Source: Bremerella sp. P1
Lineage (GTDB): Bacteria; Planctomycetota; Planctomycetia; Pirellulales; Pirellulaceae
Direction: 5' to 3'
NCBI RefSeq assembly: GCF_028748185.1
Contig: NZ_CP118164.1
Location: 3,931,814-3,995,813, forward strand
DNA: 64,000 bases
In this document: positions 47,717 through 52,464 of the stretch, piece after piece
Layout of the letters: each line of letters starts with the position of its first letter
Position numbering within the stretch: position 1 is the first letter of the stretch
Program-made: the position numbers and the translations under genes
The notes under the pieces: model-generated
Databases searched by the model: none
What the model saw: the letters and a program-made list of their open reading frames with translations, nothing else
Told to the model about the DNA's origin: nothing

Positions 47717-48196
47717 TTAGCCTTCAGCCTTGGGCTGCTCTTCGCCGCCTTCAGCCGGAGCTTCCGCGGTTTCACCTTCGGCAGGAGCAGCAGCTTCAGC
47801 GCCTTCTTCGGCCGGAGCTTCGGCAGCTTCGCCTTCAGGGGCGGCTGGTGCTTCCGGTTCAGGCTCTTTGATTTCAACTTTCGGAGGAACGTAGGCAGTC
47901 TTGGTCGCCATGCGAGCCAAGGCTTCTTCGCGAGCTGCCACGTGGCTGCCGTTGGTGCCGTACTTACGGATCAAAACAGCAACCTTCGGGGAAGGCTGAG
48001 CACCGACGCCGAGCCAGTAGTCGACGCGTTCGGTCTTCAGGTTAACCCGGGCGTCCTTTTCTTTGACGAACGGATCGTAGGTACCAAGATACTCGATTGC
48101 CTTGCCATCTCGTGGGGTACGAGAATCCATGGCGCAAATACGATAGAACGGACGGTGTGCCCGACCCATCTTCTTCATGCGAATGCGAACTGCCAC
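47717..48196 (-). CDS. rpsP: 30S ribosomal protein S16 with long acidic tail
   Basis: 159 residues, nearly twice the usual length. The first about 85 are normal S16 (AVRIRMKKMGRAHRPFYRIC, RDGKAIEYLGTYDPF, GAQPSPKVAVLIRKYG). The rest is an Ala/Glu/Pro-rich acidic tail (APAAPEGEAAEAPAEEGAEA in part). Such tails occur in some other planctomycete and actinobacterial S16 proteins, but the role is unknown. Upstream of trmD by 15 bases. Confidence 0.95.
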   Translation of the reverse strand: MAVRIRMKKMGRAHRPFYRICAMDSRTPRDGKAIEYLGTYDPFVKEKDARVNLKTERVDYWLGVGAQPSPKVAVLIRKYGTNGSHVAAREEALARMATKTAYVPPKVEIKEPEPEAPAAPEGEAAEAPAEEGAEAAAPAEGETAEAPAEGGEEQPKAEG

Positions 48197-48247: not shown

Positions 48248-49708
48248 TTAACGACGCCGTTTCTTGAGCTTCTTCTTGAGTTTCTTCTGGTTTTGGACAT
48301 CCTTGGAGGTCATCCGTTTACCGGTGCTTTGCTTGGCCTTCTTCATCTTGCCGGTTGGATCCATCAGCTCGCCGGAGCGAAGCTTCCGCATCATGTCCAT
48401 GGCGCCACCCATGCCGCCTCCGGCCATTCCCTTCATCAGCGAGGCCATGCTGTCGAACTGCTTGATGAGTTCGTTGACCTCCTGGGGGGAAACGCCAGAG
48501 CCTTTAGCGATCCGCTGACGACGGCTGTTGTCGATCAACTTAGGATCGTTGCGTTCGTCCGGGGTCATCGAGTCGATCATGCCGCCCAGACGACGCATTT
48601 CTTTCTCGTGATCACCGCCTTGCAGCATCTTGGTCATCTCGCCCATGCCTGGCATCATCCCGAGCATTTTCTGCATCAGGCCAGGTCGAGCGATCTGGTT
48701 GAGCTGCTTACGGAAGTCGTCCAGTGTGAACTGGCCCTTTTGAAGCCGTTCCTGCGTCTTCTGGACTTGCTCCTGGTCGAACTCACGTTGGGCCATCTCG
48801 AACATCGACTGGATGTCGCCCATTCCAAGAATCCGGCTCGCAAAGCGGTCCGGGTGGAAAGGATCGAGGCCGTCCATGTGCTCGCTGACACCGACGAACT
48901 TAATCGGTACGCCAGTGACATGTTTGACCGACAGCAATGCACCGCCTCGGGCATCGCCATCGAGCTTGGTCATGATGACGCCGTCCAGTTCCAGGGCTTC
49001 GTTAAACGCCTTGGCACTGTTGACTGCGTCTTGTCCGGTCATGCCGTCGACAACCAGGAAAGCCTTGTCCGGCTGAACCTTCATGTCGATGGTCTTGAGC
49101 TGCTGCATCAGCTCTTCGTCGATTGCCAAACGACCGGCCGTGTCGAGAATCACGACATCGATGCCGTTGTCTTTGGCGTGTTTGACGGCGTTCTGGCAGA
49201 CAGCGATCGGGTTGGTGGCTCCCTCTTCGCTGTAAACGGGCGTGTCGACGCTTTTGCCGACAATATGAAGCTGTTCAACGGCGGCAGGACGCTGAAGGTC
49301 GGCAGCACAGAGCAGGGCCTTTTTGCCCTCTTTGCCGATCAAGCGTGCTAACTTACCGCACGTGGTCGTCTTACCGGCACCCTGCAAACCGCACATCATC
49401 AGCACGGTGACACCCTGTTTCAGGTGCAGGGTAGGGTCGGAATCGCCGCCCAGTAGCTCGATCAGGGCCTCGTTGACGATACCGACAAGCTGCTGCTCAG
49501 GCTTGAGCGACTTGAGGACGTCCTGGCCGACTGCTTTCTCAGAGACGTCCTGCATGAAAGTCTTGACGACGTCATAGCTTACGTCAGCTTCAAGCAGGGC
49601 GTTCTCGATGAGCTTCAGGCCCTCCCGCATGTTCGATTCGGTCAGTCGGCCCTGTCCGCGCAGCGTCTTAAACGCTGATCGTAAGCCGTCTTGTAACGAG
49701 TCCAACAT
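48248..49708 (-). CDS. ffh: Signal recognition particle protein Ffh
   Basis: 486 residues. Binds signal sequences and SRP RNA and, with FtsY, targets ribosomes to the membrane. N domain followed by G domain: [17 protein letters not shown] (P-loop), [29 protein letters not shown]. The M domain has a Met-rich finger ([20 protein letters not shown]) and the RNA-binding [11 protein letters not shown]. The tail is Lys-rich. First gene of ffh-rpsP-trmD-rplS. A separate M-domain-like protein is encoded 199 bases upstream on the same strand. Confidence 0.97.
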
Positions 49709-49907
49709 CGCAGGATCTGCCTAAGGGTCGAATATCACGTAGCTGGGAGTTCGCTCCGAGGGGTGAGATCTTGCCCATGAAAAGACAAAACAACCCTACG
49801 GCCCACTCCCGAGAGATGGGTCGAAACGCGTATTCTAGCGAACCCCACGGCAGGTTGGCAATTGGTAATGCGGGGACGAAGGCGGGATTTTCACGAGCGA
49901 TTGGCCC

Positions 49908-50261
49908 TTAGATGGGGGGTGGGTTGTCTCCGGTAGGCGGCCATCCTCTCTCCTTGATGTCCTTAAACTGCTCGTACGAGCGAATCAGTAAACGGACTTC
50001 CTTTGTCGAGACGCCTGCAGCAACCGCAATCCGCTCTTGGCGTGTTCCGTCGATTAAAGATGGCGTTTTTCGTTCTTCTACCGTCATCGAATCGAGAATT
50101 CGCAGTTCTTGTTCGACATAGTCGCCAAGCTTCTCTCGGAGTTGCTTCTTGTGCTCGTACCAGCCTTGAACCAGCAATCCGGCGAATCGATCAAACCATG
50201 TCGGATAAATCAGATCATGGAGTTCTTGACGATAACTATCCAAGGTAAACGTGGACGGCAT
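49908..50261 (-). CDS. Free-standing SRP M-domain-like protein
   Basis: 117 residues lacking any N or G domain. Its sequence follows the Ffh M domain of the next gene: FTLDSYRQELHDLIYPTWFD against [20 protein letters not shown], and ILDSMTVEERKTPSLIDGTR followed by QERIAVAAGVSTKEVRLLIR against [20 protein letters not shown] and [20 protein letters not shown]. The Met-rich finger loop is replaced by VQGWYEHKKQLREKLGDYVE, with no Met, and the GSG of the RNA-binding motif is AAG. So signal-peptide binding and perhaps RNA binding are altered. Its ATG is 9 bases after the stop of the thioredoxin/NHL gene upstream, so both are probably one operon; ffh lies 199 bases downstream. Confidence 0.82.
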   Translation of the reverse strand: MPSTFTLDSYRQELHDLIYPTWFDRFAGLLVQGWYEHKKQLREKLGDYVEQELRILDSMTVEERKTPSLIDGTRQERIAVAAGVSTKEVRLLIRSYEQFKDIKERGWPPTGDNPPPI

Positions 50262-50270
50262 TGGGACGCT

Positions 50271-52067
50271 CTACTTCTGAATCGCCCCCTCAGGTGCCTC
50301 TGGCCGCTTCTTCACGGGCATCGGCTTCAATCCTTTGATCTGCAGGGTGGAAACCTCTTTCGTCTTGATATCCATGACACGAATCATGTGGTTATTCGTG
50401 TCCGCGATGTAGAGCTTGCCGCCAGCGTGAGAAATCCCTGCCGGTTCGTCGAACTGGGCGGGATCGTTGGCATTACCAGGCTCGCCGGTGCCTGCAATCG
50501 TTGTCACATCGCCAGTAGCTGCATCGACTGCTTTGATCTTGTTGTTGTAGGTATCGGTGGTGTAGATGACTCCATCAACGTAGCAAACGCCCAAAGCATG
50601 CTGCAGTTTGGCCGTCTTCGGAGGACCATCCACGTCGCCAAAACTGAACAAACGACCGTAAGGTAGATGAGCCGTTCCAATCACGGTTCGCACACTTCCT
50701 TCGGGATCGAACGGTACGGCACGGATCGAGCTGCCTTCGCTGTCAGCCACAAACAATTCCTTTCCGTCCGACGTTAGCCCCGAGGGTTGGGCGAAGGACG
50801 AGTGCCCTTGCTGGTAAGGAACAGGGGGGAGCAGGGGCCCATCGACGATGTCTTCGCGGCCGTTGCCTGCGTATGGACCGATTTCCTTCTCGTCGAGTGT
50901 CATTTTCCAGATCTGGTGAGGACCTGCCATCGCGATGTAAAGACTGTCGCCATGGGGCCAAAGAGCCCAGGGGCTGTTGATGGGCGTCGTCTTGGGCAAT
51001 CCAACGAATCGATCTGGCAGGCTGGATAACGTGGCATTTTCACCAACACCTGGCCAGTTATTTCGTGCCTGTTCGCCGACCCCAGCGATCGTCGAGACTT
51101 GTTTCTCTTTCAGATCGACTTTGCGAATCAGGTGGTTTTCGGTGTCGGCGACATACAAAGTGTCCTGTACGAGGGCCACTCCTTGCGGATGATCAAACAT
51201 GGCTGATGCATACCCGCCGTCGGCCGAACCAATCTCACCGCTCCCGATCACATCCTGCAATTGACCGTCGAGAGATGTGATCACGATTCGATTGTGATTA
51301 CTGTCTGAAATGAACAATCGATTGGACTTTTCGTCAGCCAAAACCTTCCCCGGGAAACGGAGTTGGGTCGGCTGCTGGCTGTAGGCCAACAGGTCGAATT
51401 GGATCGGCGTTTCGTCGAGCGAGCCATTGTTCCGATAGTAGGGCATCGATCGGTTTAGCACCTCGCGAATGTCGTCCGCTTTGAACTCGCCGCGGCGAAG
51501 ATAAACGACGTTGCCTTCGGGGTCGATGAGGTACATCGTGGGCCAACTGCTGACGCTGTAGCCATTCCAGATCTTCATTTCGTCGTCGTTCACGACGGGG
51601 TGTTCGATCTCGTATCGGAGGATCGCTTCGCTGATGTTTTTGGCCTCTTTTTCCGTATCAAACTTGGCCGAGTGAACGCCAATCACAACGAGCTGGTTGG
51701 GGAATTCGTGCTCTAACTTCTTAAGCTCAGGGAGGATATGGATGCAGTTGATGCAGCAATACGTCCAGAAATCGAGCAGGACGTACTTCCCTTTCACGTC
51801 TTCAAGTTCCAGGGGGCCCTTGGTGTTCATCCACTCCATGTCTTTGGGAAACGCCGGAGCTGGAATACGGGCACGGAAAGGATGTTCGGGCTCCTTAGCC
51901 TCCGGCTCATCTTTGGTTGCTTCTTCCTTGGTGGCGGCTGGTTGCTGTTCTTCCGCCATCGCAAACGGATGCGTCGAAGAACTTCCGCAGCCGACCAGTA
52001 GCAAGACAGCAGCAAACAGCGCTAGCTTGCGCAGGATTGGTAAGGGAGAAACATGCAGGCAAGTCAT
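50271..52067 (-). CDS. Thioredoxin-NHL repeat lipoprotein (NHLRC2-like)
   Basis: 598 residues. Lipoprotein signal with lipobox LLVGC near residue 27, so probably membrane-attached outside the cytoplasm. Then a thioredoxin-like domain (about 75-210) with VLLDFWTYCCINCIHILPEL, a CINC redox site, and an Asp/Pro loop DPEGNVVYLRRGE. From about 225 to 590 NHL beta-propeller blades follow (NRLFISDSNHNRIVIT, DTLYVADTENHLIRKV, LYIADTNNHMIRVM). The layout equals that of eukaryotic NHLRC2. A role in extracytoplasmic thiol chemistry is inferred. Confidence 0.9.
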   Translation of the reverse strand: MTCLHVSPLPILRKLALFAAVLLLVGCGSSSTHPFAMAEEQQPAATKEEATKDEPEAKEPEHPFRARIPAPAFPKDMEWMNTKGPLELEDVKGKYVLLDFWTYCCINCIHILPELKKLEHEFPNQLVVIGVHSAKFDTEKEAKNISEAILRYEIEHPVVNDDEMKIWNGYSVSSWPTMYLIDPEGNVVYLRRGEFKADDIREVLNRSMPYYRNNGSLDETPIQFDLLAYSQQPTQLRFPGKVLADEKSNRLFISDSNHNRIVITSLDGQLQDVIGSGEIGSADGGYASAMFDHPQGVALVQDTLYVADTENHLIRKVDLKEKQVSTIAGVGEQARNNWPGVGENATLSSLPDRFVGLPKTTPINSPWALWPHGDSLYIAMAGPHQIWKMTLDEKEIGPYAGNGREDIVDGPLLPPVPYQQGHSSFAQPSGLTSDGKELFVADSEGSSIRAVPFDPEGSVRTVIGTAHLPYGRLFSFGDVDGPPKTAKLQHALGVCYVDGVIYTTDTYNNKIKAVDAATGDVTTIAGTGEPGNANDPAQFDEPAGISHAGGKLYIADTNNHMIRVMDIKTKEVSTLQIKGLKPMPVKKRPEAPEGAIQK

Positions 52068-52464
52068 GGATAAGACCTTCCGTATCTGGGGGCAGGATTC
52101 CAATAAATTGGAACGATTTAGGGAGAGAAAGGCTGTATATATTCGTACAATGCTAGTTAGTTTACCGGCTGACGTTGTCGCTGGTAGCTCTTTTCATTTT
52201 AGGAACGGCTAGCATGCATCGCCCACCCTACAGAGGAGTGTAGCGAGCATCTTCAAAAAATTCCTGGGGCGAGCATGGAATTTTGCCGACAAACTATAAC
52301 GATTATAGCGATTATTCCGGATGCGTCCGGAGACGATATTGTCGAACTTGCACCGAGGAATGTGCTACCTTTGGTGGAATGGTCTACGTGCGGTGAAGTC
52401 GGAGTGACTTTCGCCACATCCTACCCTTACGGACCAACCCCGCCAAATATCGGAGGATTAAACC
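52068..52464. other. Divergent intergenic region with two palindromes
   Basis: 397 bases between the lipoprotein (minus) and DUF1573 (plus) genes. CTATAA-CGA-TTATAG (52294-52308) and TCCGGA-TGCG-TCCGGA (52316-52331) are adjacent and could be operators or promoter parts. A 66-codon frame at 52275-52475 has no ribosome-binding site and is not called. Confidence 0.5.
52294..52331. promoter_or_regulatory. Adjacent inverted repeats upstream of the DUF1573 gene
   Basis: CTATAACGATTATAG is a perfect 6-3-6 palindrome; 7 bases later TCCGGA is repeated with 4 bases between. They lie 134-171 bases before the GTG start of the DUF1573 gene. Function is a guess. Confidence 0.35.

What the first reader, a model, noticed from the sequence alone, without database searches (positions are those of the whole stretch)
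49908..50261. An SRP M domain encoded on its own, beside ffh
The 117-residue protein aligns by eye along nearly the full length with the M domain of the Ffh encoded just downstream, including its first helix (FTLDSYRQEL against [10 protein letters not shown]) and the D-S-M-T-x-x-E-R core with the RNA-binding helix region. It has no GTPase. Its Met-rich signal-peptide finger is replaced by charged and aromatic residues, and GSG in the RNA motif is AAG. It could be an SRP decoy, an RNA-binding regulator, or a new targeting adaptor. It follows a thioredoxin/NHL lipoprotein gene by 9 bases. I know of no described stand-alone M-domain protein in bacteria, but I could not search.
Basis: partly seen in the sequence, partly recalled or inferred. 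Interest (0 to 1): 0.75.

Follow-up and report, generated by a model that had tools for sequence, protein, structure and literature searches.

The report
Stand-alone SRP M-domain protein
This small planctomycete gene encodes only the RNA-binding core of the universal protein-targeting factor Ffh, without its GTPase engine or signal-peptide pocket, and similar stand-alone versions are conserved in some related bacteria, which points to an unrecognised way of tuning or extending protein targeting.

Summary
Window 49908-50261 (minus strand) encodes 117 residues that match Pfam SRP_SPB at 47.2 bits (cut-off 27) and fold like the Ffh M domain (best Foldseek hit 1hq1), with no N or G domain. It starts 9 nt after a thioredoxin/NHL gene and ends 199 nt before ffh, which has its own promoter-like site. 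It is under purifying selection (omega about 0.2; omega = 1 rejected, p 1e-6). Three sister species carry a more Ffh-like copy in the same slot. Elsewhere in Planctomycetota such proteins occur in 7 of 7 held genomes of one family (beside ffh in 4) and 16 of 16 of another (followed by rpsP in 15). The window copy keeps R398, R401 and G407 of the SRP-RNA motif (G405 is Ala) but lacks the Met-rich finger, linker helix and last helix of the signal-peptide groove. Best reading: an M core that occupies SRP RNA and so limits SRP. Main rival: a ribosome-exit adaptor like mitochondrial mL105/MAP67, the closest described precedent. My literature searches listed no bacterial stand-alone M protein. Identity is near certain; mechanism is inferred.

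The parts
49908..50261 (-). stand-alone M-domain gene (117 aa, P0001)
   Evidence: SRP_SPB 47.2 bits; M fold
49959..50249 (-). M core, residues 5-101
   Evidence: Pfam stretch 5-101; helices H7-18, H22-30, H32-57, H61-65, H72-82, H86-105
50013..50045 (-). counterpart of the SRP-RNA-binding motif, residues 73-83 TRQERIAVAAG (Ffh [11 protein letters not shown])
   Evidence: that these positions contact RNA in E. coli Ffh is recalled
50262..50270 (-). 9-nt spacer after the thioredoxin/NHL stop, same length in the four genomes with a copy
50271..52103 (-). thioredoxin/NHL-repeat protein gene upstream
   Evidence: Pfam Thioredoxin_8 and NHL
49832..49861 (-). promoter-like site of ffh, TTGCCA-18-TAGAAT
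   Evidence: 1 found, mean 0.5 in shuffles; lies in a block conserved in the 7 genus genomes aligned (first hexamer TTGTCA in G003)
49709..49867 (-). conserved ffh leader between the stand-alone gene and ffh
   Evidence: 89-92% identity to the three sister species against 45-46% in the ORF; no Rfam match in 49600-50400
48248..49708 (-). ffh (N, G and M domains)
   Evidence: TIGR00959 548.5 bits, cut-off 473.2
47717..48196 (-). rpsP, ribosomal protein S16
   Evidence: matches Pfam-typed S16 genes of L174 and L170
46985..47701 (-). trmD
   Evidence: matches the Pfam-typed TrmD of L173
46608..46958 (-). rplS, ribosomal protein L19
   Evidence: Pfam Ribosomal_L19

Best explanation
The gene makes a real, selected SRP M-domain core without the N and G domains. 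SHOWN: sequence and fold class, purifying selection, loss of methionines, absence of the NG part, location between the thioredoxin/NHL gene and ffh. INFERRED: it is read with the thioredoxin/NHL gene, since ffh has its own promoter-like site. Its M core binds the M-binding stem-loop of SRP RNA as the isolated E. coli M domain does, but it cannot hold a signal peptide (no linker helix, no Met-rich finger, no last helix) and cannot dock on FtsY (no GTPase). Bound to one of the genome's two tandem SRP RNAs it would take RNA away from Ffh or make an inactive particle, and so set how much active SRP is available.
For: SRP_SPB 47.2 bits. M fold: pLDDT 80.8, best Foldseek hit 1hq1, E 2.3e-3, probability 1.00, TM 0.88 by target length; a single-sequence control of low confidence (pLDDT 57, best E 0.046, TM by query 0.17-0.37) also has SRP54/Ffh entries in its first 24 places. 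Omega 0.195 on the window branch; omega = 1 rejected, 2dL 23.4, p 1.3e-6. R398, R401 and G407 kept, S397T, G405A, S406A; in six further NG-less mini-M ORFs R398 5 of 6, R401 5 of 6, G405 5 of 6, G407 6 of 6. Met fraction 0.104 in 18 Ffh rows, 0.030 in those six. The groove consists of linker helix, first M helix, finger loop and the last two helices (PMC4468861, passages); the window protein begins at the first M helix. Two tandem SRP RNAs in the window genome, both with GGTCAGG...GGAGCAGCC. M domain of E. coli Ffh alone with RNA is a solved structure (1dul, 1hq1, entry titles and chain lengths).
Against: G405 is Gly in 18 of 18 Ffh rows and Ala here, so RNA binding may be weak or lost. The tandem RNAs occur also in genomes without the gene (G003, G005, G008), so co-occurrence lends no support. 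In the two families where a stand-alone M protein is universal the RNA motif is altered (R401 is Glu in 14 of 16 of f35; S397 is Glu in 5 of 7 of f32), so RNA binding is not the common function of such proteins. There are no binding or expression data.
Confidence: 0.42

Rival explanations
1. Ribosome-exit adaptor, as mitochondrial mL105/MAP67: an NG-less M domain that sits at the tunnel exit on its own and contacts the nascent chain or the insertase, without SRP RNA and GTP.
For: mL105 is an Ffh-M homologue without NG, bound at the mitoribosome tunnel exit (PMC7326499 section 10, passages) and associated with a density taken for an insertase (PMC9576764, passages). Foldseek lists 9g6k_Le, 9i05_AI and 6z1p_AT for the window model at ranks 26, 28 and 32, probability 0.93-0.98. 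In family f35 the stand-alone gene is followed by rpsP in 15 of 16 genomes and has lost R401 and G405.
Against: The window protein keeps R398, R401 and G407 and ends 12 residues after its last core helix, so it lacks a C-terminal helix such as mL105 puts into the tunnel. The mitoribosomal hits rank below the first 25 SRP hits, and at probability 0.11-0.13 with the single-sequence model.
Confidence: 0.25
2. Passenger: a partial copy of ffh that is kept by chance or has only a residual role.
For: Only 4 of 9 held genomes of the genus have it in this slot. In the window genome a deletion seems to have removed the tail and its old stop, so that the last codons come from former downstream DNA (my reading of the alignment). 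Lower GC3 (0.505 against 0.758 in the M part of ffh). The only functional sign is sequence constraint.
Against: Omega 0.195, neutrality rejected. In a neutral simulation from a sister copy 0.35% of 2000 runs met no stop, and 5 of 400 stop-free runs kept as good an M-profile score. Stand-alone M proteins are universal among held genomes of two other families.
Confidence: 0.18
3. Regulator of ffh through mRNA binding: the M core binds the ffh leader RNA rather than SRP RNA.
For: The ffh leader is strongly conserved and starts 40 nt after the gene. The RNA-binding helix pair of SRP type is kept.
Against: No SRP-like or other Rfam element in 49600-50400. The core block of the leader is conserved also in G002, G003 and G007, which lack the gene, so its conservation has another cause, most simply the promoter.
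Confidence: 0.08

Closest known systems
Ffh/SRP54 M domain (Pfam PF02978, PDB 1hq1, 1dul, 2ffh)
   Same: sequence profile, helical core, R398, R401 and G407 of the RNA motif
   Different: no N and G domains, no linker helix, no Met-rich finger, no last helix; own gene; G405 is Ala
mL105 / MAP67 of mitochondria (PMC7326499, PMC8321541, PMC9576764; passages read)
   Same: Ffh M domain without NG; for MAP67 the authors propose origin from a duplicated Ffh by deletion of N and G
   Different: mitochondrial; mL105 is part of the mitoribosome. The window protein is bacterial and coexists with a full Ffh and SRP RNA genes
f32 and f35 stand-alone M proteins of Planctomycetota (found here)
   Same: NG-less M domain, in part beside ffh (f32) or before rpsP (f35)
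   Different: about 190-255 aa with C-terminal extensions (two, L174 and L188, lie in longer open frames and were trimmed for alignment); DUF6576-like end in the two f32 proteins scanned; RNA motif altered; they group apart from the window protein in a quick tree, one origin for all not firmly excluded (p-AU 0.060)

Membership tests
SRP_SPB domain family (PF02978) | score over Pfam gathering cut-off over most of the profile | tested here: met
   47.2 bits against 27, profile 2-89 of 91
SRP_SPB domain family (PF02978) | M-domain fold | tested here: met
   Foldseek ranks 1 to 25 are all SRP54/Ffh entries, best 1hq1 E 2.3e-3, probability 1.00; none reaches E 0.001. The alignment given to AlphaFold held Ffh rows; the single-sequence control is of low confidence but agrees
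Ffh/SRP54 protein | N and G (GTPase) domains and full-length equivalog score | tested here: not met
   no SRP54 or SRP54_N match; TIGR00959 41.6 bits against 473.2
Ffh/SRP54 protein | Met-rich signal-peptide groove (linker helix, finger loop, last helix) | tested here: not met
   1 Met from the first M helix to the end against 20; starts at the first M helix; finger region predicted as part of helix H32-57 at moderate confidence
Ffh/SRP54 protein | SRP-RNA-binding motif | tested here: inconclusive
   R398, R401, G407 kept, S397T, G405A, S406A (contact roles recalled); binding itself not testable
mL105/MAP67 | NG-less M domain | tested here: met
mL105/MAP67 | binding at the ribosome tunnel exit | not testable with these tools
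   needs pull-down or cryo-EM
mL105/MAP67 | common descent with the mitochondrial protein | not tested
   no sequence of it was put in a tree; I expect separate origins, since the three sister copies group with the Ffh of their own genus

The most novel reading that the evidence does not exclude
Bacteria have their own class of GTPase-free SRP proteins: NG-less M-domain paralogues of Ffh, arisen at least twice in Planctomycetota, kept in some lineages beside ffh or rpsP, and acting on SRP RNA or at the ribosome exit as bacterial counterparts of mitochondrial mL105/MAP67.
Probability: 0.5. Interest if true: 0.85.

Novelty: new variant of a known kind. Interest (0 to 1): 0.72.

Why it matters
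SRP is taken to be one Ffh and its RNA in nearly all bacteria (general knowledge). A conserved class of M-domain-only paralogues would mean that RNA or ribosome binding, signal-peptide binding and GTPase-driven delivery have been separated by evolution in free-living bacteria. It would give a natural tool to ask what the M domain does alone, and a bacterial parallel to the mitochondrial protein that is proposed to have arisen from Ffh by loss of N and G.

Tried and rejected
Decaying fragment: disfavoured by codon evolution, with the reservation that the neutral simulation takes a sister copy as starting point. Simple vertical orthology with the sister copies: the slot is the same, but codons at shared residues are no more alike than chance (13 of 40, 16 of 38, 13 of 34; expected 15.2, 14.9, 13.7), against 59 of 87, 69 of 101 and 66 of 92 among the sisters, while the flanks are ordinary; an older gene overwritten by ffh in the sisters, or a replacement in the window genome, fits better. 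The tree does not decide (four copies held together: p-AU 0.545). Dedicated second SRP RNA: the tandem RNA is also in genomes without the gene. SRP-like RNA in the ffh leader: none. Mobile or viral origin: no relative in one scan of viral contigs; of the hits listed (20 of 37; 10 of 10), those with annotation under the match are ffh genes, the others have none shown. The first genome-contig scan found no relative; the second kept 80 of 116 loci, of which I used 35 as Ffh rows and did not check the neighbourhoods. The third SRP_SPB match in the window's genome (E 0.06) is taken as chance. Left out of counts: G076, whose second match ends at a contig end and covers profile 2-47 only; G092 and G152, two full-length frames each; G185, ffh cut at contig ends. 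Short or partial frames that I did not follow, which may be cut ffh: G013, G028, G072, G148, G198, G210, G217.

Full report
WHAT IS THERE. The minus strand of 49908-50261 encodes 117 residues starting with ATG. Pfam finds one family over its cut-off, SRP_SPB, 47.2 bits, E 3e-12, over nearly the whole profile; the NCBIfam Ffh model matches it only over the M part, 41.6 bits against a cut-off of 473.2. Neither library shows the SRP N or G domain. In the whole genome the full Ffh (window 48248-49708) and this protein are the only two matches over the Pfam cut-off; a third, E 0.06, is below it. The order on the minus strand is thioredoxin/NHL gene, 9 nt, stand-alone M gene, 199 nt, ffh, rpsP, trmD, rplS.

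FOLD. AlphaFold with an alignment of 38 rows (the window protein twice, the window's Ffh M domain, 35 of the 80 loci) gives pLDDT 80.8 and pTM 0.70, with block means over 90 in residues 51-100. Foldseek against the PDB ranks the E. coli M domain 1hq1 first (E 2.3e-3, probability 1.00, TM 0.88 by target length); ranks 2 to 25 are also SRP54/Ffh entries; mitoribosomal proteins of Toxoplasma and Tetrahymena stand at ranks 26, 28 and 32 among further SRP entries. No match reaches E 0.001. Because the alignment held Ffh rows I folded the sequence alone as a control: confidence is low (pLDDT 57, pTM 0.40), the helices lie in nearly the same places, and the first 24 hits are again SRP54/Ffh entries, though with weak scores (best E 0.046).

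ANATOMY. [quoted passage not shown] The window protein starts at the first M helix, so the linker helix is absent; its finger region is rewritten without methionine and predicted as helix, at moderate confidence; it ends 12 residues after the last core helix, in a low-confidence tail. Of six positions that I recall as RNA contacts in E. coli Ffh, R398, R401 and G407 are kept, S397 is Thr, G405 and S406 are Ala; S406 is Ala in 5 of 18 Ffh rows too, G405 is Gly in all 18.

SELECTION. Codon models on four stand-alone and four ffh sequences, 74 confidently aligned codons, give omega 0.030 for ffh, 0.188 for the sister copies with their stem and 0.195 for the window copy; fixing the window branch at 1 costs 2dL 23.4, p 1.3e-6; with 49 C-terminal codons 2dL is 17.5, p 2.9e-5. 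The length of that branch runs to the bound that I set, so omega is rough. A neutral simulation from the G006 copy to the same identity (0.363 over 113 sites) met no stop in 0.35% of 2000 runs; of 400 stop-free runs 5 had an M-profile score as high as the observed 52 bits (mean 25.1, sd 9.8).

SISTER COPIES. Of nine held genomes of the genus, four have a short M gene in this slot: the window's G000, and G001 (149 aa), G004 (142 aa), G006 (145 aa), each 9 nt after the thioredoxin/NHL stop. G002, G003 and G007 have no such gene there; G005 and G008 have another gene of 344 and 342 aa between. The four form one side of a 100% branch in a tree of the two flanking genes. The sister copies are 70-79% identical to one another and, for G001, 66-73% to the Ffh of the genus, with an acidic C-terminal tail in place of the basic Ffh tail. 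The window copy is 34-39% identical to them; in DNA the ORF is 45-46% identical, against 66-79% in the end of the gene before it and 89-92% in the ffh leader after it, and its codons at shared residues agree no more than chance, although the thioredoxin/NHL genes of the four differ by a dS of 0.9-1.3 only. So either the window copy is an older stand-alone gene that ffh overwrote in the sisters, or it was replaced; the tree does not decide.

RELATIVES ELSEWHERE. A Pfam-profile search of 119 genomes of the window's family found extra M-only frames over the cut-off in 7: G000, G001, G004, G015, G051, G075 and G086, after leaving out G076, a contig-end fragment, and G092, two full ffh; G006, G084 and G157 came from other searches. 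That makes at least 10 of the 241 held genomes of the family; the search of all 241 used the window protein as query, is less sensitive and its list was cut. The six outside the genus lie on other contigs than ffh or over 3 million bases from it. The stretch of G015 is part of a longer frame and its start is my choice.

In a phylum sample of 148 genomes nine had a second match: G000, G001, three of family f32 and four of family f35. In these two families every held genome has one: 7 of 7 in f32 (five genera) and 16 of 16 in f35 (six genera); in two of the 16, G411 and G413, the stand-alone match is the only one, in incomplete genomes. In f32 it lies between murA and ffh, followed by rpsP, trmD and rplS, in G269, G288 and G403, and close to ffh on the other strand in G404; in G304, G401 and G402 I saw no ffh in the stretch around it, and in G401 murA and ffh stand elsewhere without it between them. 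In f35 it is followed on the same strand by rpsP in 15 of 16, within 250 nt or overlapping in 14 and 1.5 kb off in G411; the sixteenth, G406, is at a contig end. Full ffh of f35 lies 8-22 kb away on the same contig in 8 genomes. Two f32 proteins scanned carry a C-terminal DUF6576-like stretch, one over its cut-off and one just under. In f35 R401 is Glu in 14 of 16 and G405 is never Gly; in f32 R398 is kept in 7 of 7, R401 in 5 of 7, G405 in none. In a quick tree of 51 rows f32 and f35 proteins group together (SH-aLRT 98) and, with the four f32 Ffh rows included, apart from the window's family (100); no f35 Ffh was in the tree. Holding all stand-alone rows together costs 33 log units, p-AU 0.060, so two or more origins are likely, not proven, and long branches are in play.

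HOW IT MAY WORK. Shown: an M core alone, selected, without groove and GTPase. Inferred: binding of SRP RNA, since half of the motif positions are unchanged and the others conservatively changed, and hence competition with Ffh or an inactive particle. The genome has two tandem SRP RNA genes (G000:C1:6743522-6743617 over the Rfam cut-off, 6743660-6743745 below it), both with the sequence that I recall as the M-binding loop; a pair was also seen in G001, G003, G004, G005, G006 and G008, one copy only in the stretch around the G007 gene, and no hit in G002, which is 68% complete. As the pair is not confined to genomes with the gene, it gives no special support. The ribosome-exit reading rests on mL105/MAP67 and on the rpsP linkage in f35.

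LITERATURE. The listings of searches of the open-access library showed no report of a bacterial M-domain-only Ffh paralogue; most subscription papers and preprints are not held. From papers I read passages only. PMC8321541 proposes that MAP67 arose from a duplicated mitochondrial Ffh by loss of N and G, the same route that I infer here.

VERDICT. A real, selected, NG-less M-domain gene, one of several such genes in Planctomycetota. Identity near certain; mechanism open between SRP-RNA occupation and ribosome binding.

Noticed in passing
G000:C1:6743522-6743745 (L069), and L070-L076: Two tandem SRP RNA genes, 126-137 nt apart, in 7 of the 8 genus genomes with an SRP RNA hit (one copy seen around the G007 gene); no second copy reaches the Rfam cut-off.
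   Followed up: partly
L069-L076: By eye, the apical loop of these SRP RNAs reads CC-UUAACU-GG or CC-UUAAUU-GG, not the GGAA tetraloop of E. coli (sequences).
   Followed up: no
L169-L172, L181, L183-L192: In family f35 an M-only gene stands before rpsP, the place that ffh has in the window; full ffh lies elsewhere.
   Followed up: partly
L173, L175: Two f32 stand-alone M proteins end in a DUF6576-like stretch.
   Followed up: no
window 49797-49867: Block with promoter-like TTGCCA-18-TAGAAT before ffh, conserved in the seven genus genomes aligned.
   Followed up: partly
L038:5003-6037 and L041:4662-5690: G005 and G008 carry another gene of 344 and 342 aa, with a signal-peptide-like start by eye, between the thioredoxin/NHL gene and ffh.
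   Followed up: no
L063:3266-3553: The G015 M-like stretch sits inside a longer frame; two searches count TGA stops within its match and one counts none, so it may be partly decayed.
   Followed up: partly
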